In this document: positions 6,012 to 27,594 of the stretch, piece by piece
Layout of the letters: each line of letters opens with the position of its first letter
Numbering within the stretch: the first letter of the stretch is position 1
DNA from: Bacteroidaceae bacterium
Lineage (GTDB): Bacteria; Bacteroidota; Bacteroidia; Bacteroidales; Bacteroidaceae
Length of the DNA stretch: 64,000 bases
Reading direction: 5' to 3'
Assembly: GCA_017445925.1 (NCBI GenBank)
Contig: JAFSRW010000043.1
Span: forward strand, 1-64,000
Notes under the pieces: model-generated
What the model was told of the DNA's origin: nothing
Seen by the model: the letters and a program-made list of their open reading frames with translations, nothing else
Database searches by the model: none
Program-made: the position numbers and the translations under genes

Positions 6012-6019
6012 GAAATACA

Positions 6020-12669: not shown

Positions 12670-12854
12670 TTTGAGTGGTTCAAGGAGTTTAAGCCTTGGA
12701 ATTGTTGACAGAATGATTTAAAGCTAAAGCTTAAACGTTTTTAGATACACTCATGTTGTGTATATTAATGGCAAAGATGAGCTTTTTTTAGCAAATGATG
12801 AGCGAATAAGGTAATTATTCATGCTTGGAATACTCATTCTGCATCTTTTATTCC

Positions 12855-12862
12855 TATATTTG
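12855..12862 (+). promoter_or_regulatory. Bacteroidota -7 element for the epimerase gene
   Basis: TATATTTG fits the Bacteroidota -7 consensus TAnnTTTG and lies 31 bases before the ATG at 12893. No clear -33 TTTG is at standard spacing; the nearest TTGG is 26 bases upstream. The element supports the 12893 start over an in-frame ATG at 12821, which lies upstream of it. Confidence 0.5.
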
Positions 12863-12892
12863 TCCCTTGGAATAAAGAAAAATCGTATCACT

Positions 12893-14149
12893 ATGCCTGC
12901 AAAAAGTCACCTTTTTCTTTCAAATGAGACATTATTGCGCACTCTATGCCGTGAAGTCCACGAATGTCTTATACAAAATATCCTGTCTTTCTGGCTCAAC
13001 AATATGCTTGACGCAAAACAGGGCGGCTGGTATGGACGGATGACGGGAAAGGGCCTGATAGAGGAGAATGCCCCACGCGGTGCCATCCTCTATGCCCGGT
13101 TGCTTTGGACAATGAGCGCAGCATACAGAGTGCTTTCTGACCGCTCCTACCTGGATGCTGCCACTATGACAAAAGATTATATCATTGAACATTTCATGGA
13201 CAAGGAATATGGTGGCACGTTCTGGAGTGTTACGGCAGATGGACAGCCACTTGATACCAAGAAACAGTTTTACGCTCAAGGGTTCATGCTTTACGGCTTT
13301 TCGGAATACGTCCGGGCAACAGGTGACGAGGAGGCTTTGCAAATTGCCGTCCATCTCTTCGACATCATTGAACGCCACGCTTGGGACGATGACTACGGGG
13401 GCTATATCGAGGCTTGTTCGCACGACTGGCAACCCATCGCGGACATGCGTCTCTCCGCCAAGGACGAGAACTATCCGAAAAGCCAGAACACGCATTTGCA
13501 TATCATTGAACCATACACCAACCTGCTTCGTCTGCTTCAAGAAACTGACCCGGAAAGCGAGTATGCCAGAAAGGTCTCAGCGGCAGTCGGGCGTTTGGTC
13601 TCCCTTTTCATTGACCACATTCTTAACTCCAAGACACATCATCTCGACCTCTTCTTCGATATGGACTGGACACGCCGCAGCACTACCGAAAGCTATGGCC
13701 ACGACATAGAATGTTCATGGCTCTTGCACGAAGCTGCCCTTGTGCTTGCCGACAAAGCTATATTAAATAAGGTAGAACCTATAGTAAGAGAGGTGGCATT
13801 GGCGAGCGAGAAGGGGCTGCAGCCCGACGGATCCATGATTTATGAAGGAGAGCCCGACGGCTCGCACTTCGACCGCGACCGCCACTGGTGGGTGCAGGCA
13901 GAGGCCGTCGTGGGGTTCTTCAATCTCTATCAGCATTTTGGCGATGAGAAGGCACTGGATAAGGCAATACGATTGTGGCACTACATCAAGGACCGACTCA
14001 TCGACTACGAGCATGGCGAATGGTACTGGAGCATTCACGAGGATGGCAGTGTGAACCTCGACGACGACCATGCCGGCTTCTGGAAATGCCCATACCACAA
14101 TGGCCGCATGTGCCTGGAACTTATAGAGCGCATAGGAACAATGCTCTGA
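12893..14149 (+). CDS. Cellobiose/mannobiose 2-epimerase (AGE family)
   Basis: 418 residues, no signal peptide, so cytoplasmic. It matches the N-acylglucosamine 2-epimerase/cellobiose 2-epimerase family, an (alpha/alpha)6 barrel, and has the expected family length. Histidines typical of the active site are visible: H201 and H203 in THLHIIEPY, H270 in GHDIECSW and H402 in CPYHNGR. The family converts beta-1,4-mannobiose to mannosylglucose, which is the substrate of the GH130 enzyme encoded 9 kb downstream, so that role is strongly implied here. I chose the ATG at 12893 because the -7 element lies just upstream and the family-like sequence begins there. Confidence 0.88.
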   Translation: MPAKSHLFLSNETLLRTLCREVHECLIQNILSFWLNNMLDAKQGGWYGRMTGKGLIEENAPRGAILYARLLWTMSAAYRVLSDRSYLDAATMTKDYIIEHFMDKEYGGTFWSVTADGQPLDTKKQFYAQGFMLYGFSEYVRATGDEEALQIAVHLFDIIERHAWDDDYGGYIEACSHDWQPIADMRLSAKDENYPKSQNTHLHIIEPYTNLLRLLQETDPESEYARKVSAAVGRLVSLFIDHILNSKTHHLDLFFDMDWTRRSTTESYGHDIECSWLLHEAALVLADKAILNKVEPIVREVALASEKGLQPDGSMIYEGEPDGSHFDRDRHWWVQAEAVVGFFNLYQHFGDEKALDKAIRLWHYIKDRLIDYEHGEWYWSIHEDGSVNLDDDHAGFWKCPYHNGRMCLELIERIGTML

Positions 14150-14172
14150 TACACATAAAACACATAATCGTT

Positions 14173-15072
14173 ATGACTCAGCAAGATTTCACTACAGCAC
14201 CTGTGATGCGAGAAATTACACCGCTTTCTGACAGCGACTGCTTCTACTTGGCCGACCGCCACAAGTCGTCATTCGACTTCCCCATCCATAGCCACCCCGA
14301 ATTCGAACTTAATTTTATCGGCAACGCCGTGGGAGTGCGTCGAACGGTTGGGGATAACAGTGAGACGATTGGGGAGTATGACTTGGTTCTCATCGCCAGT
14401 CCAAATCTGGAACACGTTTGGGAACAAGGGAATTGTCATAGCAGGGACATCAGAGAGATTACCATACAGTTCACCTCAGACGTGCTGCCCGAGAGTTTGC
14501 TCAATAAAAACCAGTTCCATTCCATCCGGCAGATGCTGGAGCGTGCCCGCCTTGGCCTCGCCTTTTCACAACTTACCATTATGAAGATTTATGGGAGATT
14601 AGACGAATTGACATGTCAGCAACACGGATTCCATGCGGTGCTGAGCTTCCTTGAACTGCTTTACGACTTGTCACAGGCTGACGACAGCCGCACCTTATCC
14701 AGTTCCTCGTTTGCACGCATCAAGGCAAGCAGTGAGAGCCGTCGCGTCAATAACGTACAGCAATACATAGCGAGTCATTTCCGCGAAGAAGTGCGTCTTG
14801 AACAAGTTGCAGAGTTGGTAGGGATGACACCTGTAGCTTTTTCCCGCTTCTTCCATCAACGTACAGGTCGTACCTTGTCGGACTATATCATTGAGATTCG
14901 CCTGGGATTTGCTTCACGAATGCTGATAGATACCACAATGACGGCTGCTGAAATATGTTATGACTCTGGCTTCAATACGCTCTCTAATTTCAACCGCTTG
15001 TTCCGCAAACATAAAGGATGTACCCCTACAGAGTTCCGTGAGAATTACAACAAGAAGAAAATCATCATTTAG
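14173..15072 (+). CDS. AraC-family transcriptional regulator of the mannan locus
   Basis: 299 residues from the ATG at 14173. The N-terminal half contains a cupin-like sugar-sensing domain (HSHPEFELNFI). The C-terminal 100 residues are an AraC double helix-turn-helix (VNNVQQYIASHF..., VAELVGMTPVAFSRFFHQ, then AAEICYDSGFNTLSNFNRLF). It lies 23 bases after the epimerase gene and just before the hydrolase genes, so it probably activates the locus in response to manno-oligosaccharides; the inducer is inferred. An upstream in-frame extension overlapping the epimerase gene is not supported by family length. Confidence 0.88.
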   Translation: MTQQDFTTAPVMREITPLSDSDCFYLADRHKSSFDFPIHSHPEFELNFIGNAVGVRRTVGDNSETIGEYDLVLIASPNLEHVWEQGNCHSRDIREITIQFTSDVLPESLLNKNQFHSIRQMLERARLGLAFSQLTIMKIYGRLDELTCQQHGFHAVLSFLELLYDLSQADDSRTLSSSSFARIKASSESRRVNNVQQYIASHFREEVRLEQVAELVGMTPVAFSRFFHQRTGRTLSDYIIEIRLGFASRMLIDTTMTAAEICYDSGFNTLSNFNRLFRKHKGCTPTEFRENYNKKKIII

Positions 15073-15127
15073 AAGGGCTGTGCCATCAATGGTTAAGAAA
15101 GAGTCAGCCAATTCCAATAATAGTCAG

Positions 15128-15135
15128 TATTTTTG
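15128..15135 (+). promoter_or_regulatory. Possible -7 element before the GH26-esterase gene
   Basis: TATTTTTG followed by CAG fits TAnnTTTG and lies 32 bases before the ATG at 15168. A matching TTTG at -33 is not obvious, as would be expected of an activator-dependent promoter. Confidence 0.4.
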
Positions 15136-15167
15136 CAGCCGTATAATAATATTAAAGAAATGAGGCT

Positions 15168-17438
15168 ATGAGACGTTACAAGTTTTTCGTATTTCTTGCC
15201 GTAGTGTCAATTTCCATGCAAGGCCAAATATCCCCGCAACCCGTTGACAGCGAGGCTACAGGGCCAGCGCAGCAACTTTATCGCTACTTGCGCGATAAAG
15301 TGTGGGACAAACAGGTACTCTCGGGCTGTCAGGCACGATGGGACTATAACACAATGGATGCTGATGGCATCTATGAGCGTACAGGCAAGTATCCTGCGAT
15401 CAATATCTTCGACTTCCAACACTTTCGTCAGCATAACCTTAATTATATGGGTCCTACGGCCAAGGCTTGGCACGATGCTGGTGGTATCGTTGGATTTATC
15501 TGGCACTGGAGTGTACCCATAGCTGCCGACCTGTCAGCCAAGGAGGGTTTTGCCTTCTACTCCCCCACGGGTTCCCAAGGTCGTCTCGGTACGCTCTTCT
15601 CACCACGTAGAGCTGTTCAGGTCGGCACTCCTGAACACTGCATCATCAATGAGAACCTGGACACCATCGTCAGCTACTTTCTCCATTACCAGAGGCAGGG
15701 AATACCCATCCTTTGGCGACCTTTCCATGAAGCAGCAGGCAATATCAACCGAGGCGGCAAGGCCTGGTTCTGGTGGGGTAACGATGGGGCTGAGGCCTTC
15801 AAACAGCTTTACCTTTATACCCAACGTTATCTGATGGAACATGGTGTACATAACCTTATTTATATCTGGACATCGGAACTGGATGATGACGACTGGTATC
15901 CTGGTGACGAATATGTTGATATCGTGGCACGAGACCAGTACCATGCGCCCTCGCAACATGGTTCATTCAAGCAGCAGTTCAATCTCTTGCGCAACAAATA
16001 TCCCTCAAAGATGCTTGCTTTGGCGGAATGCGATTGTGTTCCAAGTGCCGAGGCAATGGAGAAGGACAATGCCCGTTGGCTCTTTGTGGCACCGTGGACT
16101 ACACCCTTCGTCTTCAGCCAGCAAAACGATGATGCTTTCTGGCGACAATTTCTCAACGAGAAGCTAATACTGACCCGCGATGAGGTCAATCGCGCAGGAA
16201 CCTACCGCCTCGGCATCAACAAGGAAAGCGGAATCTACGAGAAAGGTGAGCAGGCTGTAGTTACCTGCCATGCAGATCCCGTGCCGCTGGACTCCCTCCT
16301 CGTGCGTGTGTCATATAATAATAAGGTATGCCGCGAGTTTCGCTTGCTGCCTGCTACAGCTGATTTTATCGTTCTGGATCAGGCACTGGACAGCACTTGC
16401 GCCGTCAGTGTGCAGGTGCAGGAGCGTACAGGCAAGCCAGAAGCAATTGGCTATGTGGTGGACCCGGAAGGCTTTCGTTCTGGCTACGAAGAACCCGCAG
16501 ATTTGATGTCCTATTGGAACGACTTAAAAAAACAACTCAAGGCATTGCCCATGCAGATAAAGACAACACCATTGGACGTGCCGGAGCAGTATCAAGGCAA
16601 ATACACCTGTCAGAATTTGGAAATTAACTGTCTAGGCCCTGCACCCGTACGAGCATACATGGCCAAGCCTGTCAACGCAAAAAAGAAATCCCTGCCTATT
16701 ATCATTCTCTGCCGCGCTGCAGGCGTCAGTGGCAACTGGTGCCGATGCTCGGAATGGGAGTGTGTACACAATGCTGCTTTGGGCAATGGCGCTCTCAGCC
16801 TTGACATCAATGCGCATGGAATGTTGAACGGTCAGTCAGACGATTATTATAAAATGCTCGAAGATGGGCTCTTGCACAATTACTATGAATACAATGCTGC
16901 CGACCGAGAAACCTATTACTTCCGCGGCATGTACTTACGTCTGTTGCGTGCCATAGAATATATGACTCAACAGCCCGAGTGGGATGGCAAACGCATTATC
17001 GTTATTGGCGAGAGCCAGGGTGGTGGACAGGCTGTTGCTGCAGCAGGACTCGACCCGCGTGTCAGCTGTGTGGTGCTCAACGTACCTGCGATGCAGGATT
17101 TGGGTGGAGCCAGAAGAGGACGCCGCAGCGGCTGGCCACAACCCATAGAGAACCATCAGCATCTCTCACAATCCCAACTGGATGCCACACTTCCCTATTT
17201 CGATGGGGCACAGCTTATTCGTCATTCCAAGGCCGAGATCTACTGCGAGATAGGACTGATAGATACCACTTGCCCACCCTCTGCCGTATGGTCGTCGCTC
17301 AACAATGCAAAGGGCAAGAAGACCGTCAACTGTGTGCCCTTCCGCACCCACGCATGGCCTTCTGGAGCATTCCGTCAGCCGTGGGAACAGAAATACCTTC
17401 GCCCACGTGAGGCATTCATCAACGAATATCTGAAGTAA
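15168..17438 (+). CDS. Secreted bifunctional GH26 beta-mannanase / CE7-type acetylesterase
   Basis: 756 residues with a signal peptide at about 1-20. Residues 25-345 form a GH26 domain: acid/base E188 in WRPFHEA and nucleophile E287 in LALAECD. Residues about 345-422 look like a small Ig-like domain, and 425-756 match the AXE1 (acetyl xylan esterase, CE7) alpha/beta-hydrolase: S616 in GESQGG, D699 in IDTTCPP and H728 in THAWPSG form the expected triad. I infer that it cuts the backbone and removes acetyl groups from acetylated mannan. It lacks the YDLSGR-type tail of its neighbours. GH5 starts 3 bases after its stop, so they share an operon. Confidence 0.88.
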   Translation: MRRYKFFVFLAVVSISMQGQISPQPVDSEATGPAQQLYRYLRDKVWDKQVLSGCQARWDYNTMDADGIYERTGKYPAINIFDFQHFRQHNLNYMGPTAKAWHDAGGIVGFIWHWSVPIAADLSAKEGFAFYSPTGSQGRLGTLFSPRRAVQVGTPEHCIINENLDTIVSYFLHYQRQGIPILWRPFHEAAGNINRGGKAWFWWGNDGAEAFKQLYLYTQRYLMEHGVHNLIYIWTSELDDDDWYPGDEYVDIVARDQYHAPSQHGSFKQQFNLLRNKYPSKMLALAECDCVPSAEAMEKDNARWLFVAPWTTPFVFSQQNDDAFWRQFLNEKLILTRDEVNRAGTYRLGINKESGIYEKGEQAVVTCHADPVPLDSLLVRVSYNNKVCREFRLLPATADFIVLDQALDSTCAVSVQVQERTGKPEAIGYVVDPEGFRSGYEEPADLMSYWNDLKKQLKALPMQIKTTPLDVPEQYQGKYTCQNLEINCLGPAPVRAYMAKPVNAKKKSLPIIILCRAAGVSGNWCRCSEWECVHNAALGNGALSLDINAHGMLNGQSDDYYKMLEDGLLHNYYEYNAADRETYYFRGMYLRLLRAIEYMTQQPEWDGKRIIVIGESQGGGQAVAAAGLDPRVSCVVLNVPAMQDLGGARRGRRSGWPQPIENHQHLSQSQLDATLPYFDGAQLIRHSKAEIYCEIGLIDTTCPPSAVWSSLNNAKGKKTVNCVPFRTHAWPSGAFRQPWEQKYLRPREAFINEYLK

Positions 17439-17441
17439 AAT

Positions 17442-18815
17442 ATGAAACGATTCATCTTATCTTTAACATTCATATCTGTATGTGTCTGCATTTGCGCGCA
17501 GAACATGACTTCTTTTGAATCATCCTACGAGGCAGTAGAGCATATGCGACTAGGATGGAACCTAGGCAATACGCTGGATAGCAATTCGGGCGACACGCTG
17601 AACATGTGGATTGAACACTGGACCGATTGCACGCCTGCAGTTTACGAGAAAGCTTGGGGACAGACCGTGGTGAAACCGGAACTTTTCAGATTATTCAAGG
17701 AAGCAGGCTTTAATGCTATCCGCGTACCCGTGACCTGGTACCCTCATATGGAAGCCAAGTTCAAATTCAACACAAGTAGCAATAGCATCTGGTACCCATC
17801 GAAAGACGATATCGGTACTAAGGTGCAGACTGCATGGATGCAACGTGTGAAGGAAATCGTTGATTACGTCATCGGCCAAGGAATGTATTGTATTCTTAAC
17901 ATCCACCATGATACAGGTGCCTCCAACACTGCATGGCTGGTAGCTGATGAAGCCACCTATACCAGCCAGCATGAACGTTTCGAAGCGATATGGCAGCAGA
18001 TAGCCGAGACATTCCGCGACTATGACGAACACCTGCTGTTCGAAGCCTACAACGAGATGTTAGACGGTGACCGTTCGTGGTGTTTTGCCTCGTTTGGTGC
18101 ACCAGGAAACTATAACGCCGCCAAAGCCAAGGCGGCCTACACTGCCATCAACAATTATGCCCAGAATTTCGTAGATGCAGTCCGTGCCACCGGAGGCAAC
18201 AACGCACAGAGAAATCTCGTCGTCTCCACATACGGGGCATGCAACGGAGGGGGAAACTGGAGTTCCCATCTGCAAGACCCACTCAAGGAAATGCTATTGC
18301 CCAACGATCCTGCCGGCGAAGGACACATTATCTTCGAGGTGCATAGTTATCCCGAAGTCAAGAATCTCAACAATGCCAAGAACGAGCTACAAAACAACAT
18401 TAATGACCTCAAGAAGTATCTGGTGAAGAAAGGTGCACCTGTCATCTTCGGTGAATGGGGAACAAGTACAGAAAAAGCTTACGAGAACTACCGCAACAAC
18501 ATGCTTGAATTTGCTCGCTATTTTGTACAGCAGACCAAGCAAGCAGGGATGGGCACCTTCTACTGGATGGGGCTCTCAGACGGAGCCGACCGTGATAATC
18601 CAGTCTTCACCCAACCTGACCTTGTAGATGCCATCACCAAGGGCTACTATGGTGACGGCGGTTATGCCGATGGCATTAGATCAACCTCCAATTCCACTGG
18701 AAAAGATAAGAGGAAGGATGACAGATGCTATGACCTGAGCGGTCGCCGTATCACAAATTCAACCGAGCAATCTGGTATAATTATTAGAAATGGTAAGAAA
18801 GTAATCAGGCAATAA
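17442..18815 (+). CDS. Secreted GH5 endo-glycanase
   Basis: 457 residues with a signal peptide at about 1-19. GH5 hallmarks are clear: GWNLGNTLD near residue 39, the IRVPVTW strand, LNIHHD, acid/base E205 in EAYNEM and nucleophile E338 in VIFGEWG. Subfamily cannot be fixed by eye, so endo-mannanase, glucomannanase and endo-glucanase are all possible. The locus favours glucomannan or mannan. The C-terminus carries YDLSGRRI...GIIIRNGKKVIRQ, a short type IX-like tail. The gene is packed 3 bases after one stop and 1 base before the next start. Confidence 0.87.
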   Translation: MKRFILSLTFISVCVCICAQNMTSFESSYEAVEHMRLGWNLGNTLDSNSGDTLNMWIEHWTDCTPAVYEKAWGQTVVKPELFRLFKEAGFNAIRVPVTWYPHMEAKFKFNTSSNSIWYPSKDDIGTKVQTAWMQRVKEIVDYVIGQGMYCILNIHHDTGASNTAWLVADEATYTSQHERFEAIWQQIAETFRDYDEHLLFEAYNEMLDGDRSWCFASFGAPGNYNAAKAKAAYTAINNYAQNFVDAVRATGGNNAQRNLVVSTYGACNGGGNWSSHLQDPLKEMLLPNDPAGEGHIIFEVHSYPEVKNLNNAKNELQNNINDLKKYLVKKGAPVIFGEWGTSTEKAYENYRNNMLEFARYFVQQTKQAGMGTFYWMGLSDGADRDNPVFTQPDLVDAITKGYYGDGGYADGIRSTSNSTGKDKRKDDRCYDLSGRRITNSTEQSGIIIRNGKKVIRQ

Positions 18816-18816
18816 G

Positions 18817-19998
18817 ATGAGAAAGACATCATTTATACATATCTTGCTGATGCTGTTCATGGTGAGTGGCATTTCGGCACAGGAGTCCCGGCAGTTGTCG
18901 CCAGAGGCTGAGGCTCTGCTGCAGTATCTGAAGGAGATTGAAGGCGAGAAAACACTTTCGGGAACTACTGCCAACGTAAACTGGAACATCAACGAGGCCA
19001 AGTGGGTAAACAAGCACACAGGCAAATGGCCGGCGCTGAATTTCTTTGATTTCATCCACCTTCCTTTCTCGCCATCCAACTGGATTGACTACAGTAATAT
19101 CACCGAAGTCTATAACTGGCATAAGAATGGTGGCATCGTAGGTTGTATGTGGCATTGGAACATGCCAACCAACGATGGTCAGGACTGGACCTGCACGCCA
19201 GGTACGGGTAACAAAGAAACCGGCTTTGATGTCCGAAAGATCTTCGAGCCCGAGTCGGCTGAGTATAAGCAGATGATGAATGACATTGATAAGGTAGCCT
19301 CTACTCTTAAAAAACTCAAACAACGGAAAATTCCCGTGTTGTGGCGTCCATTACACGAGGCAGGTGGCCAATGGTTCTGGTGGGGACTTGATGCAGAGGC
19401 TTGTAACGAACTGTGGCGAGTGATGTACGACCGGTTCACCAATCGCCATGGTCTCAACAACCTCATCTGGGTGTGGACATCAGCAGCAGAGTGGAACAAG
19501 CCTTATAGCGACGGCTACAAATGGTATCCTGGCGACGAATATGTGGACATCGTGGGTATTGACATCTACAACAATAGCAGCGCCAGTAACATCAATTCCA
19601 CCTGTTTCAAAATGCTGAAACAGCACTCCCCCGACAAGTTAATAGCTCTTACTGAGTGTGGCAATCTGGCAACCATCAGTCAACAATGGAAAGCAGGGGC
19701 TAGATGGCTCTATTTCGCGCCATGGTATGATTATGAACGCACCAACAAACCCGATAGTGAGGCGTTCAAGAGCACGGAGCACACCCATTGCAACGCAGCC
19801 TGGTGGACAGAGGCTTTCTCCAACGACTATGTCCTCTCGCGTGAAGATTTCAAACAAGAATTGCAAACAAGTTTAAAAGCTGTTCAGGCTGAGCAAACAC
19901 TCGCGCCCTCCGGCAGCTATGACCTTTTTGGACACCCTTGGACGGAGGGCCGCCGTGGAATCTTTATTAAGAACGGAAAGAAATATATTAGAAAATGA
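18817..19998 (+). CDS. Secreted GH26 beta-mannanase
   Basis: 393 residues with a signal peptide at about 1-21. A single GH26 domain fills the mature protein: WRPLHEAGG with acid/base E181, TECG with nucleophile E280, plus the GGIVGCMWHWNMP and WYPGDEYVDIVG motifs. It should hydrolyse beta-1,4-mannan, probably to mannobiose as related Bacteroidota GH26 enzymes do. The C-terminal tail YDLFGHP...[13 protein letters not shown] suggests surface export. Its stop overlaps the ATG of the next gene (ATGA). Confidence 0.9.
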   Translation: MRKTSFIHILLMLFMVSGISAQESRQLSPEAEALLQYLKEIEGEKTLSGTTANVNWNINEAKWVNKHTGKWPALNFFDFIHLPFSPSNWIDYSNITEVYNWHKNGGIVGCMWHWNMPTNDGQDWTCTPGTGNKETGFDVRKIFEPESAEYKQMMNDIDKVASTLKKLKQRKIPVLWRPLHEAGGQWFWWGLDAEACNELWRVMYDRFTNRHGLNNLIWVWTSAAEWNKPYSDGYKWYPGDEYVDIVGIDIYNNSSASNINSTCFKMLKQHSPDKLIALTECGNLATISQQWKAGARWLYFAPWYDYERTNKPDSEAFKSTEHTHCNAAWWTEAFSNDYVLSREDFKQELQTSLKAVQAEQTLAPSGSYDLFGHPWTEGRRGIFIKNGKKYIRK

Positions 19999-22900
19999 TG
20001 AAACGATATTTACTTATTGGATGGCTGTTGACCATCGCGTGGATTGGAGCAACGGCACAAACTATTCGTTTAAGCTCCGAAGCTTCTGGAAAACAGTTTG
20101 ACGGCATTGGTGCCGTAAATGGTGGCGGTGCCACTTCTGTATTATTGAAGGACTACCCAGAGCCTCAGCGCTCACAGATTATGGATATGGTATACAAACC
20201 AATGTTCGGAGCTAGTGTCAGCGCACTTCTTGTGGAAATTCCTGGTGACGGCAACAGTACACAAGGTTCTATGCCCTCACATAGCCACTATCAGGGCGAC
20301 CATAACTACCTGCGCGGCTATATGTGGTGGGTGATGCAGGAGGCGAAACGGCGTAATCCGGCTCTTGCCATTGATGCTACTTCGTGGAGTGCCCCAGCCT
20401 GGGTGGGTAATTACTGGTCAGACAATATGGTGGACTACTGCATCGATTGGCTTCAGGGACTCCGTGAGGTACACGGTCTGGAACTGGATGCTTTGGGCTG
20501 TCACAACGAAAAGGGATGGAACGCCGATTTCGCCAAGCACCTGCGCAGAGCCATGAACGAAAGCGGATTCCAAGACGTGAAACTGCACGGCTTCGGCAAC
20601 TGGGGCAAACAGAAAATGGATTTCCTGAAGTACATGCAGGATGACAAGGAACTGCGCGATGCCCTTGATGCCGTCTGCGCCCATACTTTCAGCGAGATAC
20701 AATTGACTCCTGAAGAACGCAAGATAGCAGAGGATATGGACAAGCCTATCTGGAACAGCGAAGACCACGTGTATCTGCCAGGCTTTGATTGCCTCATCAG
20801 TATCGTCCACTGCTTTAACCAGAATTATATCGTCAGCGGCGCCACCAAGGTCATCAACTGGTATGACATCGGAGCTACCTATCCATTGGAGCCATATAGC
20901 AAGGAACCACCCATGCTGCTGGCCCAGGAACCCTGGAGCGGACATTACACAGTCCGTGATGCGCTATGGGGATATGCTCACTACGGACAGTTCACACGTT
21001 TGGGCTGGCGTTATATCGACGACGGTTGTATGAATTTGTCTGGTGGCGGTTCGATGGTGACGATGCGCGACCCGCAGACTGGTGACTATAGTATCATAGC
21101 CGAGACCAAAGGAGCTAAGAAGCCACAGACAATCAAAGTAAAAATAGCGTACGGCCTATCTACAGATAAACTATGTGTGTGGTACAGCGATTCCCAACAA
21201 CAGTTTGTTCGTCTGAAAGACATTACGCCCAAGGGAGGAAGTTTCTCTATTACCCTGAAACCAGATGCTGTCTATTCCATTTCCACTACTACGGGACAGC
21301 AGAAAGGTTCATTCTCAAACATTCCTTCATCTAAGCCTTTCCCTATACCATACGAAGATAACTTTGAGCAATACACGAATGCTTCGGAGTGGGGCTTTTT
21401 ACCTCACTATCTGGCAGATTTGATCGGATGCTTTGAGTTAAGACCCACTCCCGCTCCAAACCCTAAACTCTCAACTCTCAACTCCAATACCTGTATCCAG
21501 CAGGTAGTTGGTTCCCATACACTCAGTTGGGCTCCAGAATGGCATCACTATACCATCCTGGGAGATGCCAATTGGACTGATTATGAGATAAGTGCCGATG
21601 TCTATCTGAATCCTGGCGACCAGGCTGGAGTAATGGGACGCCTCTGCGATGTAGGTTCTGGATACGGTATTTGGGCCAAAGGATACTACCTGAAGATGGA
21701 CGACAAAGGGAAGGTAACACTTATCCTGACTCGTGGAAAACGTGACCAGAAGGAACTTATTGGCGACAAAGAACAGCAGGCAATCATTCTGGCACGAAAG
21801 GATGTGGAGATTGGCGGTGAATATACACTCGACGAAACACTGGTAAACGGCATTGCTCCATGTCAGTGGCATAACCTGAAATTAAGCTTCGAGAATGACC
21901 GGATAACGGGATTCGTTGATGGCATGGAAGTGGTACGTGCTAAATCTGATCATTACGGTAAGGGAATGGCCGGACTTATTGCCCCGCTTTTGGAAAGAAG
22001 TGTATCTACACCTTACTTCGACAACTTGCGTATCGTTCCTCTTGGACGCACACATGCTACAGAGACCGCCATTCCGTCTATACAGCCTATTTACCCTGCG
22101 TCAGCTAACTATAATGGGCGGCAAGCTTTATTACAAAGATTAAGACATCTTAGCAAAAAGGGTATTATGTTCGGTCACCAAGACGATCCTTTCTACGGTC
22201 TTGGTTGGCAGTGGGAACGCGGCAGAAGCGATGTGCTTGAAGTCTGTGGCGACTATCCAGCTGTTATGGGCTTCGAACTGGGAGGTATCGAGTTGGGCGA
22301 TGTCAAGAGTTTGGACAGCGTACCTTTTTCCCGTCTTCGTGAAGAATTGTTAGCCCACGTACGTCGTGGTGGTATCGCAACCATCTCATGGCATCCGCGC
22401 AACCCGCTGACTGGTGGTACGGCGTGGGACAATAAAAACAATACCGTTGTCAAGAGCATTCTTCCTGGTGGAAGTAGGTACCAGATGTTTCAAACGTGGA
22501 TGCAACGGCTATCGGCATTCCTTCTGTCGCTGAGTGATGAGCACGGGAAGCCCGTACCTGTCATCTTCCGTCCCTGGCATGAGAATAGCGGAGGTTGGTT
22601 CTGGTGGGGAAAAGGACTTTGTACAGCCGACGAATACAAGACGCTGTGGAATATGCTGCAGGACAAGCTATTGGCCGATGGGTTGACAAATATCGTATGG
22701 AGTTGGAGTCCCAATTTTGGAATGAAGGAGGATGATATGAATTCTTACCCCGGTAACAGCCGTGTAGATATCATAGGTCTGGATGCTTACCAGAATCCTG
22801 ACGGCGAGAAAGATTTTATCAGTACCCTCAACAAGGACCTTACTATGCTGTGCCGATATGCATCGGAGAAAGGTAAGATGGTTGCCCTCACGGAATGTGG

Positions 22901-23102
22901 TTATCAGAACCTGCCCGACCCGACTTGGTGGACACGCGTGCTGAAGCCTCAGATAGAGAAGTTCCCCATCAGCTACTTCCTCGTCTGGCGCAACTTCAAT
23001 AGCAAACATTACTTTGCTCCAGCGCCATCGACCAAGGATGCACCCGACTTTCGTAAGATGGTCGAAGATAACAGAATTCTCATGCTTAACGATATAAAGT
23101 AG
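19995..23102 (+). CDS. Secreted fusion: GH59 galactocerebrosidase-like domain + GH26 mannanase
   Basis: 1035 residues with a signal peptide at about 1-21. Residues 22-690 follow the galactocerebrosidase (GH59) plan: [14 protein letters not shown] at the N-terminus, a barrel with acid/base E172 in CHNEKGWN and nucleophile E256 in [13 protein letters not shown], a beta-sandwich, then a lectin-like domain (about 451-690). Residues 700-1030 are a complete GH26: E863 in FRPWHEN and E967 in ALTECG. GH59 enzymes remove terminal beta-galactose; with the mannanase I infer action on beta-galactosylated (gluco)mannan. A short period-7 repeat is translated inside the lectin-like domain (about residues 489-497). 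There is no YDLSGR-type tail. GH30 was considered for the first domain but fits the motifs less well. Confidence 0.85.
21459..21486. repeat. Period-7 array inside the GH59-GH26 gene
   Basis: Four heptamers (AACCCTA, AACTCTC, AACTCTC, AACTCCA) are translated as part of a low-complexity loop ([11 protein letters not shown]). They are of the same type as the intergenic array at 35503-35567. Confidence 0.7.
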
Positions 23103-23106
23103 TAAT

Positions 23107-24276
23107 ATGGATTTTAAGGAAAGAATGATAGAACTACGCCAGCGCCACGAGGATTTGCTGGCAAGAGAGAACAAACCTATAGAACGCTTTGGCAATGGAA
23201 TATATCGAAAGTACCAGTTCCCCATACTCACCGCCGAGCACACGCCCCTCGAGTGGCGCTACGACTTCTCGCCCGAGGACAACCCCTATCTGATGCAGCG
23301 CATCATGATGAATGCCGTGCTGAATGCAGGCGCCATCAAGCTGGAGGGGCGCTACCTGCTGGTATGTCGTGTAGAGGGTGCAGACCGCAAGAGTTTCTTT
23401 GCTGTGGCCGAGAGTCCTAATGGCATCGACAACTTCCGCTTTTGGGACGAACCCATCACGATGCCCGAAGACCTCATCCCCGCCACTAATATATATGATA
23501 TGCGCCTGACACAGCACGAGGACGGTTGGATTTACGGCGTGTTCTGTGCAGAGCGTCACGACGACTCACAGCCCGGCAATCTCAGTGCCGCTACAGCAAC
23601 TGCTGCCATTGCTCGCACGAAAGACCTCAAGGACTGGGAACGTCTGCCCGACCTCAAAAGCCGTAGCCAGCAACGCAATGTGGTGCTTCATCCTGAGTTC
23701 GTGGATGGCAAGTATGCTTTCTACACCCGTCCGCAGGATGGATTCATAGACACCGGCAGCGGAGGAGGCATTGGTTGGGCACTGGTGGAAGACATCACAC
23801 ATGCAGAGGTCAAAGAGGAAATCATTATCAATCCGCGGCACTATCACACCATCCAGGAGGTGAAGAACGGAGAAGGACCTGCACCGCTGAAGACGCCGAA
23901 GGGCTGGCTGCATCTGGCTCATGGGGTGCGCGGCACTGCCGACGGACTGCGCTACGTATTATATATATATATGACAGCCCTCGATGACCCCACACGTGTG
24001 ATAGCCCAACCTGGTGGTTGGTTCTTGGTACCCGAGGGAGAGGAATACGTGGGCGATGTGATGAACGTAGCCTTCTCCAATGGCTGGATAGTCGATGACG
24101 ACGGTCGCGTCCTCATCTATTACGCCACAGCCGACACCCGTCTCCACGTGGCTGTCAGTTCCCTCGACCGCCTCATTGACTATTGCATGAACACGCCCGA
24201 GGACGGACTGACGACGGGAGCAAGCGTGGAAACCATCAAACAACTCATCCGCAAGAATCATGGTACGCTTAAGTGA
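23107..24276 (+). CDS. mgp: GH130 4-O-beta-D-mannosyl-D-glucose phosphorylase
   Basis: 389 residues, no signal peptide, cytoplasmic. It is a five-bladed beta-propeller of family GH130, subfamily 1 type. The catalytic acid D131 lies in [14 protein letters not shown], at the same position and in the same motif as known mannosylglucose phosphorylases. It converts beta-Man-1,4-Glc and phosphate to mannose 1-phosphate and glucose, the step after the 2-epimerase. It begins 4 bases after the GH59-GH26 stop, and its own 3' end overlaps the start of the symporter by 17 bases, so the genes are translationally linked. Confidence 0.92.
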
Positions 24277-25669
24277 AAAAATAGGTTACGGCTTCGGCGA
24301 CATGTCATCGTCGATGTTTTGGAAGGTGTTTTCTTACTATCTGCCCTTCTTCTACTCCAATGTCTTTGGGCTGAGCCTTGTAGATGCAGGCGTGTTGGTA
24401 CTCGTCACCCGCATCTGGGATGCCGTCAGCGACCCCATGATGGGCATTGTTGCAGACCGCACACAGACCCGCTGGGGAAAGTACCGTCCCTATCTGCTCT
24501 GGGTGGCACCATTGTTCAGCATCGCCGGCATCCTGCTGTTCACCACGCCCGACTGGTCGTATGGTGCCAAACTCATCTATGCCTATATAACCTACATCCT
24601 CATGATGACCATCTACACGGCCATCAATGTGCCATACGGAGCTATGCTGGGAGTGATGACCGACGACTCGCAGGAGAAGACAGTCTTTTCCTCCTTCCGT
24701 ATGTTCTTTGCCTATGGTGGCTCATTTGTCGCTTTGGCAGCATGGGAACCGCTGGTGAATTTCTTCAAGGCTGGAGGTGGGCCTACCTCTCTCGCTTGGC
24801 AGCACGCCATGATGGTCATTGCTGCCGCATGCCTAGTGCTCTTCCTGCTCACTTTTGCCCTCACACGTGAGCGCCTGAAATCCATCTCCACTGTCAGCAT
24901 AGGCAAGGACTTCCGTTCGCTCCTTTCCAATCGTCCGTGGTGGCTGCTCATAGGTGCTGCCCTCTGTTTTAATCTCTTTTGTACCGTCCGAGGAGCCACA
25001 GTCGCCTATTACTTTGCCGACATTATCGGTTTTGACAGGGTTCTCAAATTATCAATTGTCAATTGTCAATTATCAATTCTCTTCTATGCGGGCCTTTTCC
25101 TCAGCGTAGGCGAAGTCTCGAACATGGTGGGTGTGGCTTGTACCGTTCCCCTCGCTCGTCGTCTTGGCAAGAAGTCGCTGTTCATGGCTGTCAATGCCTT
25201 CCTCTTGGTGTTGAGTGTCGCCTTCTTCTTCATCCCTGTTTCGCCCACAGGTTTCTGGCTTATGATCCTTTTCCAGGTTCTCATTAGCATCCTCACGGGT
25301 ATGATGTCGCCTCTCGTCTGGTCGATGTATGCAGACGTCAGCGACTACGCCGAATTGCGATACAAGACAGCCTCCACAGGCCTCATTTTCTCATCCAGTT
25401 CGATGGCGCAGAAATTTGGTGGTGCTATTGGTGGTGCTGCTGTTCTATGGCTCCTCTCAGCCTGTGGCTACGTACCGCGTACCGATGAACAGTTGGCAGC
25501 CCAAGCCCTCATCACCCAGCCCGAGTCCGCCCTTCTCTGTCTCCGCTACCTGATGTCCTTCATCCCCGCCACTGTAGCACTCATAGCTATTCTTACCTGT
25601 CACTTTTATCCCCTGACAGCAGAACGCATGACAGACATCAGCCGACAACTGAAAGAAGCCCGTTCGTAA
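24260..25669 (+). CDS. GPH-family sugar:cation symporter (manno-oligosaccharide uptake)
   Basis: 469 residues with about 12 hydrophobic segments. The sequence is MFS_2/GPH-like: [17 protein letters not shown] at the N-terminus, then [24 protein letters not shown], the conserved loop after the second helix. In comparable Bacteroidota loci this gene imports mannobiose across the inner membrane, which fits its neighbours. A period-7 repeat at 25047-25081 is translated in frame as [12 protein letters not shown] (about 263-274), near the central loop between the two six-helix halves. The helices on both sides are intact, so the protein may still work; whether it does is not shown. Confidence 0.85.
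25047..25081. repeat. Period-7 array inside the symporter gene
   Basis: Five heptamers (AATTATC, AATTGTC, AATTGTC, AATTATC, AATTCTC). Thirty bases are the exact reverse complement of the intergenic array at 12155-12211. Confidence 0.85.
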
Positions 25670-25749: not shown

Positions 25750-27594
25750 TTAGCGTTCCCACTGGAAGTGGTAGCGGAAGCGACGATTGGGTGCGGTGTC
25801 TCCTGTGGTGGAGACGGAGATGATGTCTGATGGGTCTGTGGGATTATCTGCCCACTTGAAATCTAAACTGAAGGCGTTGCCCTTCAGATGGAGTTTATTT
25901 CTGGGAACCTTAATGGTAAGGCGGTTGCCTTCGGTACTCATAACTACTGGGGCTATGGCTTGCCATTGTTGGGTGGCGACATCATAACGCTGAAGCTGAC
26001 CTCCGCTCACCAAGTAGTCATAACCTTCCCAACCCATAGAACGGGTATCTGTATCAATGTACAAGAGCATCCAGTTCCGGTCTGTAGCAGGGGTAAGGTT
26101 TTCTGCTGTTATGGCCTCAAAGATAATCTCTTTTTTGGTTACGCTGACACGGGCTTCTATGATGTCATTACGACCTGTGTTGTCAGTGTAATGCAGACCT
26201 CCGTAGCCGTTATGGTCGCGATGGATAACGTCCCCACGGGTATCAAAATAGGTAGCTGGGGTATTGTAGCCTATGGTTGCAGGTTGTGGCCTTACACCCT
26301 TATAACGACGGATGTTCTGCACCATCTGGTAGTAGTAGTTGTCGGTATATCCGCCTTTCATGGGTTGGATGCTGCGATTGAACTCGGCATTGTACTGGTC
26401 TACAAAATAGAATGGATTCTCGCGACCCAGGAAAGTTGTGGGGCCAGGAACGGTTTCACTTCCTGGAGCAAGGCCAGAACGGTATTTGCCTGCTGTCCAT
26501 TCGTTCCAGTCGTTGATATAAATGAAATCAGGGTCTACACTGAGTGCCTCATCCCAACGGTCTTGGAAGTATATGCCGTAACCCTCAGGGTTTGCTACAG
26601 TCTTGCCTAACCAAGGAACGTAAGCTGAATCGGGTAGGTCATACTGGTTGAGGGTAGGCTCTTTTGTCTCACGACGCCAACTTTTTCCTGTAATACTGAT
26701 GGGGTGTTGAGCTGGTGTGACGGCCATTTCCTCCAATCGTCCCTGATGGCGTGAAGCAAGGTCGCGTGGCTGCATGTCGGCCACACGCTTGTCGTTCATC
26801 TCATAGCCAAAGCTCCAACTGTCCTCTGTACCCACATAGCGGTGGCCGCCCCATTCGTAATAGCCCCACCACATGTTGCGCAGGGTGAAGAAGTTATAAA
26901 TCTCCTGTGGGTAGGAGCCTGCATTGTAGCCGCCTCCGTTGGCATCGTGGTCGGGCTCAGCATTGTAAAGCAAGAGCGGCTTACCTTGCCACTGGAACCA
27001 GAAATCTTGTGCTATACCTTTTTTATATATACGCTCAAACAATTGGGTGACTACGCTGACAACATTTCCGTTGAAGGCCCAAAAGCAGAACAGGGGAACG
27101 GGGTTACCCAGGGAACGCATCTTCTGCATTTCATCAAACAGAACATTCCATTCATCCCAATACAGGACGGCATTGGTAACATCCAGTATCAGTACATCAA
27201 CGCCGGCATCGGCCAACATGGAAAGGTCTCGACGGATAAGCCAACGATCCTGACTGAGGAAATAGCCTGCTTCTGGTTCTCCCCAGTGAAGGCTCCATTC
27301 CTTCCAGGCTGGGTGATAGGCATCTAATCGGGCTTCAGGAGCTTCCTGAAGGGTACGGGTAACATCGCCTCCATAGGGAGAGCGGAGTCCGAACTTACCT
27401 TCATCGTGCCAAGTGATATAGAAAATGCCTACGGTGCGAGGTCTATCGGTACGCAATGGAGCCTCTGAGGCTGTAGGCATAACGCGCCCTAATGCATCAG
27501 ATGCTACCCATGTATCTGCCTTTAGGTCAATGCTTTGCGCATAAGTTGGCAGATAAAGAAACAGCGTGAATAGGAGTGCGACGTGTTTTCTCAT
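25750..27594 (-). CDS. Secreted GH71/GH99-like putative glycoside hydrolase
   Basis: 614 residues with a signal peptide at about 1-19. The body resembles the GH99/GH71-like group of Bacteroidota secreted proteins: VGIFYITWHDEGKFG near the N-terminus, DVLILDVTNAV, LLYNAEPDHDANGGG and FIYINDWNEWTAGKY. The C-terminal third (about 450-614) is a beta-rich region, possibly carbohydrate-binding. By analogy it may be an endo-acting mannosidase, but I cannot verify catalytic residues, so the substrate is open. It converges on the mannan locus. Its ATG overlaps the stop of the lipoprotein gene by 4 bases, so it is the last gene of a Maf-lipoprotein-hydrolase transcript. Confidence 0.6.
   Translation of the reverse strand: MRKHVALLFTLFLYLPTYAQSIDLKADTWVASDALGRVMPTASEAPLRTDRPRTVGIFYITWHDEGKFGLRSPYGGDVTRTLQEAPEARLDAYHPAWKEWSLHWGEPEAGYFLSQDRWLIRRDLSMLADAGVDVLILDVTNAVLYWDEWNVLFDEMQKMRSLGNPVPLFCFWAFNGNVVSVVTQLFERIYKKGIAQDFWFQWQGKPLLLYNAEPDHDANGGGYNAGSYPQEIYNFFTLRNMWWGYYEWGGHRYVGTEDSWSFGYEMNDKRVADMQPRDLASRHQGRLEEMAVTPAQHPISITGKSWRRETKEPTLNQYDLPDSAYVPWLGKTVANPEGYGIYFQDRWDEALSVDPDFIYINDWNEWTAGKYRSGLAPGSETVPGPTTFLGRENPFYFVDQYNAEFNRSIQPMKGGYTDNYYYQMVQNIRRYKGVRPQPATIGYNTPATYFDTRGDVIHRDHNGYGGLHYTDNTGRNDIIEARVSVTKKEIIFEAITAENLTPATDRNWMLLYIDTDTRSMGWEGYDYLVSGGQLQRYDVATQQWQAIAPVVMSTEGNRLTIKVPRNKLHLKGNAFSLDFKWADNPTDPSDIISVSTTGDTAPNRRFRYHFQWER

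What the first reader, a model, noticed from the sequence alone, without database searches (positions are those of the whole stretch)
19995..23102. GH59 galactocerebrosidase-like domain fused to a GH26 mannanase
Both halves carry complete active-site motifs: E172/E256 for GH59 and E863/E967 for GH26. GH59 is best known from animal lysosomal galactocerebrosidase, and I know of no description of this fusion in a mannan locus. A beta-galactosylated glucomannan is known from plant primary walls, and this protein would be suited to strip its terminal beta-galactose and cut the backbone. That substrate is inference.
Basis: partly seen in the sequence, partly recalled or inferred. Interest (0 to 1): 0.85.

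Follow-up and report, generated by a model that had tools for sequence, protein, structure and literature searches.

The report
Galactocerebrosidase-family enzyme fused to mannanase
A gut bacterium carries one enzyme that joins a relative of the human galactocerebrosidase to a mannan-cutting enzyme inside a mannan-digestion operon, which suggests that this animal-disease enzyme family has a second life stripping galactose from plant cell-wall mannan.

Summary
Confirmed. It lies in a tight mannan operon (epimerase, AraC, GH26-CE7, GH5, GH26, this gene, mannosylglucose-phosphorylase-type GH130, symporter). Of 78 named related loci, 25 carry the same fusion, 4 the reverse order, 49 GH59 without GH26 (3 of these cut at the contig end). 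GH36 lies near 17 of the 25 fusions; in other loci the same GH26 type is fused to a GH27 alpha-galactosidase. Two loci differ by a 2.1-kb segment exactly between fused and unfused state. Best reading: GH59 removes the beta-galactose cap of Gal-beta-1,2-Gal-alpha-1,6-Man side chains of eudicot glucomannan, alpha-galactosidases remove the next galactose, and the GH26 (closest to BoMan26A, mannobiose-forming and side-chain-sensitive) cuts the cleared chain. Activity and substrate are inferred. Against: two polar contacts of the animal galactose pocket (S261, R380) are not conserved, GH59 also occurs outside mannan loci, and this operon has no alpha-galactosidase. New variant of known families; not found described in the papers searched.

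The parts
19995..23102 (+). GH59-GH26 fusion protein, 1035 aa
19995..20057 (+). N-terminal signal-like segment ([21 protein letters not shown]), no lipobox cysteine; export to the periplasm inferred by eye
   Evidence: sequence; no predictor run
20097..20990 (+). GH59 catalytic barrel (aa 35-332), acid/base E172, nucleophile E256
21033..21299 (+). GH59 central beta-sandwich domain (aa 347-435; 27.0 bits, cut-off 28)
21423..21962 (+). GH59 C-terminal lectin-type domain (Pfam GH59_C aa 477-549; 3keto-disac_hyd aa 522-656, below its cut-off), carries W512 = GALC W524
22038..22121 (+). junction (about aa 682-709): GH59 C-terminal tail of the kind that ends stand-alone GH59s, then start of GH26
22122..23012 (+). 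GH26 domain (aa 710-1006), E863/E967, with a segment aa 761-778 that aligns without gaps to loop 2 of BoMan26A
12821..14149 (+). cellobiose 2-epimerase type (NCBIfam EpiA 349 bits, below its 800 cut-off)
13975..15072 (+). AraC-type regulator (true start probably later, ORF overlaps the epimerase)
15168..17438 (+). GH26 + AXE1/CE7 acetyl esterase fusion
17442..18815 (+). GH5 (nearest solved: 6xso cellulase, E 4e-117)
18817..19998 (+). GH26, nearest solved 6hf2 (BoMan26B by recall of the code), overlaps the fusion gene by 4 bases
23107..24276 (+). GH130, nearest solved 3was 4-O-beta-D-mannosyl-D-glucose phosphorylase (E 6e-201)
24260..25669 (+). GPH-family sugar:cation symporter

Best explanation
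An exported two-headed enzyme for side-chain clearing and backbone trimming of galactosylated glucomannan. The GH59 head is a retaining exo-beta-galactosidase (E172 acid/base, E256 nucleophile) that removes the terminal beta-1,2-galactose from Gal-beta-1,2-Gal-alpha-1,6-Man side chains (eudicot beta-galactoglucomannan). Separate GH36/GH27 alpha-galactosidases then remove the exposed alpha-galactose, and the GH26 head, of the side-chain-sensitive BoMan26A/CjMan26C type, releases disaccharides from the cleared chain; these are imported by the GPH symporter and split by the epimerase/GH130 route. Shown here: domains, catalytic residues, operon, recurrent linkage with mannanases and alpha-galactosidases, repeated joining of GH59 with GH26. 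Inferred: export, beta-galactosidase activity, the 1,2 linkage, the order of steps.
For: GH59 and GH26 matches over cut-off. GALC pocket residues G48, T93, W135, N181, E182, E258, W291, W524 all invariant in 41 of 41 bacterial GH59s aligned, including W291, named for galactose specificity. Mannan operon with GH130 nearest to mannosylglucose phosphorylase. Of 78 loci: 25 GH59-GH26, 4 GH26-GH59, 49 without GH26 in the frame, of which 29 lie near GH26/GH130 genes. Another GH26 gene lies near 20 of the 25 fusions and GH130 near 21. GH36 near 17 of 25 fusions; GH27 or GH36 near 17 of 29 stand-alone GH59s in mannan loci and 3 of 4 reverse fusions, against 2 of 20 stand-alone GH59s elsewhere. The same GH26 type is fused to GH27 in 8 loci. 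Acetyl esterases (CE7, SASA, GDSL) and a GH3 recur. The GH26 aligns to BoMan26A loop 2 without gaps. In the genus 42 of 56 GH59-positive genomes carry the operon's GH130 against 14 of 83 others; all 21 genomes with the fusion carry it.
Against: S261 (0 of 41 Ser; V in the window) and R380 (K in the window; K 18, R 11 of 41) of the GALC pocket are not conserved, so the sugar in subsite -1 may differ. No GH36/GH27 in this operon, nor near its nearest relative L035; the genome's own best matches to the operon-type GH36 and GH27 are only 54% and 45% identical. GH59 also occurs beside GH115, GH43 and GH98, and 20 of 78 loci show no mannan label in the DNA held, so it is not mannan-only. BoMan26A itself was reported not to act on galactoglucomannan (PMC5217682 abstract). 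Beta-GGM was found only in eudicots (PMC10735049, passages), whereas most hosts named in the record titles are ruminants, many of them grazers. Loci are not independent samples.
Confidence: 0.58

Rival explanations
1. GH59 is a general hemicellulose beta-galactosidase (or acts on another beta-galactose-bearing decoration), recruited to several loci; in the mannan operon it removes beta-galactose that need not be the 1,2-linked cap of beta-GGM.
For: GH59 homologues lie next to GH115 (L076), GH43 (L105) and GH98 (L082); 20 of 78 loci show no mannan label in the DNA held. Ruminiclostridium GH59-1238 sits in a cluster of mostly arabinoxylan enzymes (PMC6556953, passages).
Against: GH59 is joined to GH26 in both orders and with more than one GH26 lineage, and alpha-galactosidases recur in the mannan loci.
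Confidence: 0.25
2. GH59 here acts on a sugar other than beta-D-galactopyranose, for example alpha-L-arabinopyranose (same ring shape without C6), beta-D-fucose or a glucose/mannose at the chain end.
For: Two of the polar contacts of the animal galactose pocket, S261 and R380, are lost.
Against: W291, reported to give galactose specificity near C4, and the other listed pocket residues are invariant, 41 of 41.
Confidence: 0.12
3. Fusion without functional meaning: the genes were neighbours and a deletion joined them; the heads work independently, perhaps on different substrates.
For: L052 and L049 differ by a 2.1-kb segment between the GH59 end and the GH26 domain with 91-94% identical flanks; fused and unfused states alternate on the GH59 tree, at least 7 changes forced by starred branches.
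Against: GH59 is joined to more than one GH26 lineage and in both orders and stays joined over divergent loci; every genus genome with the fusion carries the mannan GH130, 21 of 21.
Confidence: 0.2
4. Assembly chimera or mis-called ORF.
For: The window comes from an incomplete genome (84% complete, 100 contigs).
Against: Same fusion in 25 of 78 named loci from many assemblies and in 21 genus genomes (the two sets overlap).
Confidence: 0.01

Closest known systems
Animal galactocerebrosidase GALC (GH59; PDB 3zr5/4ccc)
   Same: Catalytic barrel, acid/base E182 and nucleophile E258, pocket residues G48, T93, W135, N181, W291, lectin-domain W524
   Different: S261 and R380 not conserved; a short stretch of the central domain missing; bacterial, fused to GH26, no lipid context
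BoMan26A of Bacteroides ovatus (GH26; PDB 4zxo) and CjMan26C
   Same: Nearest solved relatives of the GH26 half; both glutamates and H125, H187, W193, Y259, W323 kept; loop 2 aligned without gaps (numbering worked out by me)
   Different: BoMan26A is a separate protein in a galactomannan PUL with a GH36; here the GH26 is the C-terminal half of a GH59 protein
Bacteroides fragilis-type mannan operon (GH26, symporter, mannosylglucose phosphorylase, cellobiose 2-epimerase; pathway recalled, a 2014 paper on it seen only in a reference list)
   Same: GH130 nearest to 4-O-beta-D-mannosyl-D-glucose phosphorylase, epimerase, GPH symporter, GH26
   Different: Adds GH59-GH26, GH26-CE7, GH5 and an AraC regulator
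Ruminiclostridium cellulolyticum GH59-1238 (S-GH59-UNK-CBM6-DOC)
   Same: Bacterial GH59 in a plant-polysaccharide cluster next to a GH27; the paper says probably galacto(gluco)mannan
   Different: Cellulosomal, CBM6/dockerin, annotated putative alpha-galactosidase; no enzyme assay in the passages seen (PMC6556953)
Bxy_22780, a beta-1,2-galactosidase of Bacteroides xylanisolvens (PMC11739564, passages)
   Same: Gut Bacteroidota enzyme for beta-1,2-linked galactose, the linkage proposed here
   Different: Acts on beta-1,2-galacto-oligosaccharides, no activity of the wild type on the xyloglucan substrates in the passage seen; GH35 by recall, not GH59; galactomannan is not mentioned in that paper (0 occurrences)

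Membership tests
GH59 | Sequence match to the GH59 catalytic domain | tested here: met
   PF02057 280.5 bits, full length 1-294 of 294
GH59 | Catalytic glutamates equivalent to GALC E182 and E258 | tested here: met
   E172 and E256; 41 of 41
GH59 | Three-domain build: barrel, beta-sandwich, lectin domain | tested here: inconclusive
   Lectin domain above cut-off (30.4 vs 27); central domain 27.0 vs 28; aligned to GALC over 27-547
GH59 galactose pocket as in GALC | G48, T93, W135, N181, S261, W291, R380, W524 of GALC | tested here: not met
   6 of these 8 kept in all 41; S261 in 0 of 41, R380 as Arg in 11 of 41; residue list from PMC4445328 passages
GH59 | Beta-galactosidase / galactosylceramidase activity | not testable with these tools
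   needs protein
GH26 | GH26 profile match and catalytic pair | tested here: met
   PF02156 134.3 bits; E863/E967 in 33 of 33 partners
GH26 of BoMan26A/CjMan26C type | Long loop 2 closing the cleft beyond subsite -2 | tested here: met
   18 residues 761-778 aligned without gaps to BoMan26A 86-103; sequence only, no structure
GH26 of BoMan26A/CjMan26C type | Mannobiose as main product | not testable with these tools
   needs protein
Bacteroidota mannan PUL | SusC/SusD pair in the locus | tested here: not met
   None among the operon genes 12821-25669 scanned; TonB-receptor plug and SusD matches in L078 and L080, and by cluster in L073 and L099
Mannosylglucose phosphorylase pathway | GH130 phosphorylase + cellobiose 2-epimerase + transporter | tested here: met
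   (by similarity; the epimerase is below the NCBIfam equivalog cut-off)

The most novel reading that the evidence does not exclude
Bacterial GH59 of this group is a dedicated gut-microbial beta-1,2-galactosidase that uncaps eudicot beta-galactoglucomannan; the galactocerebrosidase family would thus include a hemicellulose-decapping branch, joined to backbone-cutting GH26 some three separate times and in both orders.
Probability: 0.42. Interest if true: 0.74.

Novelty: new variant of a known kind. Interest (0 to 1): 0.62.

Why it matters
Beta-galactoglucomannan was described in 2022 as a widespread eudicot primary-wall polymer (PMC9614514, passages). In the passages seen, the beta-galactosidases used on it or acting on it are Aspergillus niger GH35 and plant MUM2; my searches turned up no gut enzyme assayed on it (of 7,387 papers only 10 were listed). 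This protein gives a concrete, single-gene candidate, and cultured Prevotella/Xylanibacter relatives make it testable soon. It would also give GH59, known mainly through Krabbe disease, a role in fibre digestion, and bacterial comparators for GALC specificity.

Tried and rejected
Assembly chimera: rejected by recurrence. Generic endo-mannanase for the GH26 half: its nearest structures are BoMan26A and CjMan26C, while the neighbouring GH26 at 18817 is nearest 6hf2. 'GH59 is mannan-specific': rejected, 20 of 78 loci lack a mannan label in the DNA held and some lie with GH115, GH43 or GH98. The idea that unfused GH59s descend from fused ones because they share the linker-like tail: not supported, a ...PLY-type tail also ends the reverse fusions and several more distant stand-alone copies. 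A phylum sample looked GH59-rich (71 of 395 genomes), but only 3 hits, the window included, exceed 280 bits; the rest lie at 19.5-60.8 bits, most of them 450-550-aa frames, which I take to be GH30-type cross-matches (inference). In the same call the family rang in 2 of 14 control genomes. The unlinked GH36 regions on C56 and C15 showed no second operon of this kind among the labels used (a GH26 lies on C56 about 22 kb from the GH36).

Limits: trees are 'quick' ones with SH-aLRT only. Near-identical loci (for example L042/L043, L053/L055, L079/L081) were left in the counts; L096, a copy of L095, was dropped. Five of the 78 loci (L101, L102, L106, L109, L112), with under 450 aa of GH59, are not in the GH59 tree. 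Of the 49 loci called stand-alone, L075, L077 and L106 are cut at the contig's 3' end and could be fused. 'Mannan context' means a GH26 or GH130 BLAST label in the DNA held; flanks differ in length, several are short, and L054 was at first missed (28/21, mended to 29/20; the GH59 tree carries the older label). L086, counted as 'other', has a GH59 identical to that of the reverse fusion L088. The 139 genus genomes are mostly incomplete. The weak hit G041 was dropped from the contingency table; the test ignores kinship.
Full report
THE PROTEIN. The ORF 19995-23102 (+) codes 1035 aa without a stop. Pfam gives the GH59 catalytic domain at 35-332 over the whole profile (E 2.1e-83), the GH59 lectin domain at 477-549 (30.4 bits, cut-off 27), the GH59 central domain at 347-435 a bit under its cut-off (27.0 against 28), an overlapping 3keto-disac_hyd match at 522-656 below cut-off, and GH26 at 710-1006 (E 7.6e-39). 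NCBIfam has no family over cut-off. Against solved structures the first part matches galactocerebrosidase over 27-547 (E about 5e-86) and the second matches 4zxo over 711-1033 (E 6.3e-104), then CjMan26C. The N-terminus looks like a signal peptide without a lipobox cysteine (read by eye), so I infer a periplasmic protein.

ACTIVE SITES. PMC4445328 (passages) names for mouse GALC: acid/base E182, nucleophile E258, hydrogen bonds from W135, G48, T93, S261 and R380 to 3-, 4- and 6-OH, bonds with N181 and E258 for groups at the C2 position, W291 near C4 as giving galactose specificity, and W524 of the lectin domain shaping the pocket. A profile of 41 GH59s (40 relatives chosen from the 79 loci, and the window) aligned to GALC (residue numbers worked out by me from the alignment) puts these at W131, G44, T89, V259, K381, N171, E172, E256, W289 and W512. 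All are invariant in 41 of 41 except two: S261 is V 26, I 9, F 3, N 3, never S; R380 is K 18, R 11, others 12. So the galactose-type pocket is largely kept, with two polar contacts changed throughout this bacterial group. For the GH26 half, E863 and E967 and the GH26-wide residues H800, H862, W868, Y932 are present in 33 of 33 GH26 domains that are fused behind GH59 or GH27; W998 in 31, gap in 2.

WHICH KIND OF GH26. 4zxo is BoMan26A (PMC5217682, abstract and passages): similar to the exo-mannobiohydrolase CjMan26C, producing mainly mannobiose although subsite -3 can be occupied, likely periplasmic, sensitive to galactose side groups, and not active on galactoglucomannan. Its loop 2 (86-103) aligns without gaps to residues 761-778 here. 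The separate GH26 at 18817-19998 is nearest to 6hf2 (E 4e-95), by my recall of the code BoMan26B; BoMan26B is described as a cell-surface endo-mannanase (PMC6556568, start of abstract in the listing).

THE OPERON. All on the + strand and tightly packed: epimerase 12821, AraC regulator 13975, GH26-CE7 15168, GH5 17442, GH26 18817, GH59-GH26 19995 (4-base overlap with the gene before), GH130 23107, GPH symporter 24260-25669. The GH130 is nearest to 4-O-beta-D-mannosyl-D-glucose phosphorylase 3was (E 6e-201). There is no SusC/SusD and no alpha-galactosidase among these genes. The genome has three GH36-type and four GH27-type hits over cut-off elsewhere, but its best matches to the operon-type GH36 and GH27 are 54% and 45% identical.

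RELATIVES. In the genus 57 of 139 genomes give a hit with the GH59 part (one at 6e-4 and one tail fragment included). Of 51 genomes with a near-full-length frame (one frame each, fragments left out), 21 have one of 950 aa or longer. In the species-level collection 79 loci came back (capped at 80), mostly ruminant-gut assemblies, also Phocaeicola plebeius DSM 17135, Prevotella sp. P6B1, Xylanibacter ruminicola and a Pelomonas. With one copy dropped (L096), 78 loci fall into 25 GH59-GH26, 4 GH26-GH59 (L073, L078, L088, L099) and 49 stand-alone, 3 of which (L075, L077, L106) are cut at the 3' end; 29 of the 49 have GH26/GH130 labels within the DNA held and 20 do not. Beside the 25 fusions, another GH26 gene lies in 20 and GH130 in 21. 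GH36 labels occur in 17 of the 25; of the 8 without, L050 and L058 end within 300 bases behind the gene. GH27/GH36 labels occur in 17 of the 29 stand-alone mannan-context loci, in 3 of the 4 reverse fusions (the fourth ends 9 bases behind the gene), and in 2 of the 20 others (L065 at 31% identity; L086, whose GH59 is identical to that of the reverse fusion L088). Pfam on cluster representatives names GH36 (19 loci), SASA/esterase (17), GH27 (11), GDSL (9), GH3 (7) and alpha-L-fucosidase (3) (cluster counts include L096). SusD and TonB-receptor plug domains occur in L078 and L080, and by cluster in L073 and L099.

A TELLING SWAP. L049 codes a 743-aa GH27-GH26 protein, and seven more loci carry the same kind of fusion with the GH26 whole (L038, L083, L089, L092, L098, L100, L107), plus one cut by the end of the held DNA in L108. 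In the GH26 tree the GH26 domains fall into a mostly GH27-partner group (SH-aLRT 94) and a GH59-partner group (89; it includes one long CE7-linked row, L075); neither is starred. Two GH59-GH26 proteins, L052 and L056, lie inside the GH27-partner group, L052 with L049 and L098 on a starred branch (95). L052 and L049 match at 91% up to the end of the GH59 gene and at 94% from the GH26 domain on; between them L049 has 2.1 kb more, holding the GDSL gene and the GH27 half. So the fusion can arise (or be lost) by one such change. The reverse fusions use another GH26 lineage, grouped with the one elsewhere joined to CE7 (starred 98). The simplest count is three joinings of GH59 with GH26: two C-terminal ones and the reverse; partner exchange by recombination could replace one of the C-terminal ones, and the tree alone cannot tell gain from loss. 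On the GH59 tree the fused state needs 8 changes, 7 forced by starred branches; recombination is likely, for example L104/L110, which sit with unfused GH59s there but within the GH59-partner GH26 group.

INTERPRETATION. A side-chain-sensitive, disaccharide-forming type of GH26 is fused either to the enzyme expected to take off an outer beta-galactose (GH59) or to the one taking off the inner alpha-galactose (GH27), in loci that often hold the other one too. That is what beta-galactoglucomannan would call for: beta-1,2-Gal on alpha-1,6-Gal on the Man of an alternating Glc-Man chain, whose beta-capped oligosaccharides resisted alpha-galactosidase until beta-galactosidase had acted (PMC9614514, passages). 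I give the beta-galactosidase activity about 0.85 and the whole reading with beta-GGM as substrate 0.58. Points against: the changed S261/R380, the alpha-galactosidase missing from this operon and from that of L035, GH59 in non-mannan loci (GH115, GH43, GH98), BoMan26A's reported inactivity on galactoglucomannan, and beta-GGM seen only in eudicots (PMC10735049, passages) while many hosts graze.

GENUS-WIDE ASSOCIATION. 42 of 56 GH59-positive genomes (weak hit G041 dropped) have the operon's GH130 at E 1e-100 or better, against 14 of 83 others (Fisher p 5e-12, not corrected for kinship); 21 of 21 with the fusion and 18 of 30 with stand-alone GH59.

LITERATURE. Searches in the held open library: GH59+galactosidase 46 papers, 30 listed; GH59+mannan 29, 25 listed; GH59+Prevotella+GH26 7; phrases such as GH59-GH26 none. 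None of the titles or abstract starts listed describes the fusion; subscription papers are mostly missing. One earlier hint: GH59-1238 of Ruminiclostridium cellulolyticum, called a putative alpha-galactosidase probably acting on galacto(gluco)mannan (PMC6556953, passages). Two rumen surveys list GH59 abundances only, in the passages seen (PMC9163818, PMC12335128). A Bacteroides beta-1,2-galactosidase, Bxy_22780 (PMC11739564, passages), is the nearest known activity; it is GH35 by my recall. A mannan-degradation review has no mention of GH59 (PMC10492685, 0 occurrences).

VERDICT. The protein is a new combination of known families with a well-supported place in mannan breakdown; the exact sugar it takes off is the open and easily testable question.

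Noticed in passing
L049:12902-15130: GH27 alpha-galactosidase fused to the same GH26 type that is fused to GH59 elsewhere; seven more loci with it whole.
   Followed up: yes
L078:8948-12019 and L073, L088, L099: Reverse-order GH26-GH59 fusion in Prevotella/Xylanibacter-type genomes, in three of four beside a GH27 and SusC/SusD-type genes.
   Followed up: partly
L109:14364-17426 (also L069, L112): About 1020-aa protein: epimerase domain followed by about 600 aa with only a remote, below-cut-off GH30-type match, beside GH26 genes and, in L069 and L112, a GH27.
   Followed up: partly
L096:1339-4815 and its cluster in 13 loci: 1100-aa protein with an F5/8C domain and otherwise no clear Pfam match, recurrent in mannan loci; may be a glycan binder.
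   Followed up: partly
window 25750-27594 (-): 614-aa protein next to the operon with only a below-cut-off GH99 match (18.8 bits).
   Followed up: partly
window 972-11809: Two giant proteins with BspA-type leucine-rich repeats upstream of the operon.
   Followed up: no
window 15168-17438: GH26-CE7 (acetyl esterase) fusion; the locus pairs a mannanase with a side-group remover twice.
   Followed up: partly
L076:7343-12040: Phocaeicola plebeius DSM 17135 GH59 beside a GH115 and a TonB-type receptor, hinting at a xylan-type role for some bacterial GH59s.
   Followed up: partly
L069:7853-9904: GH97 directly before a stand-alone GH59, in a locus that also has GH27 and GH26 labels.
   Followed up: no
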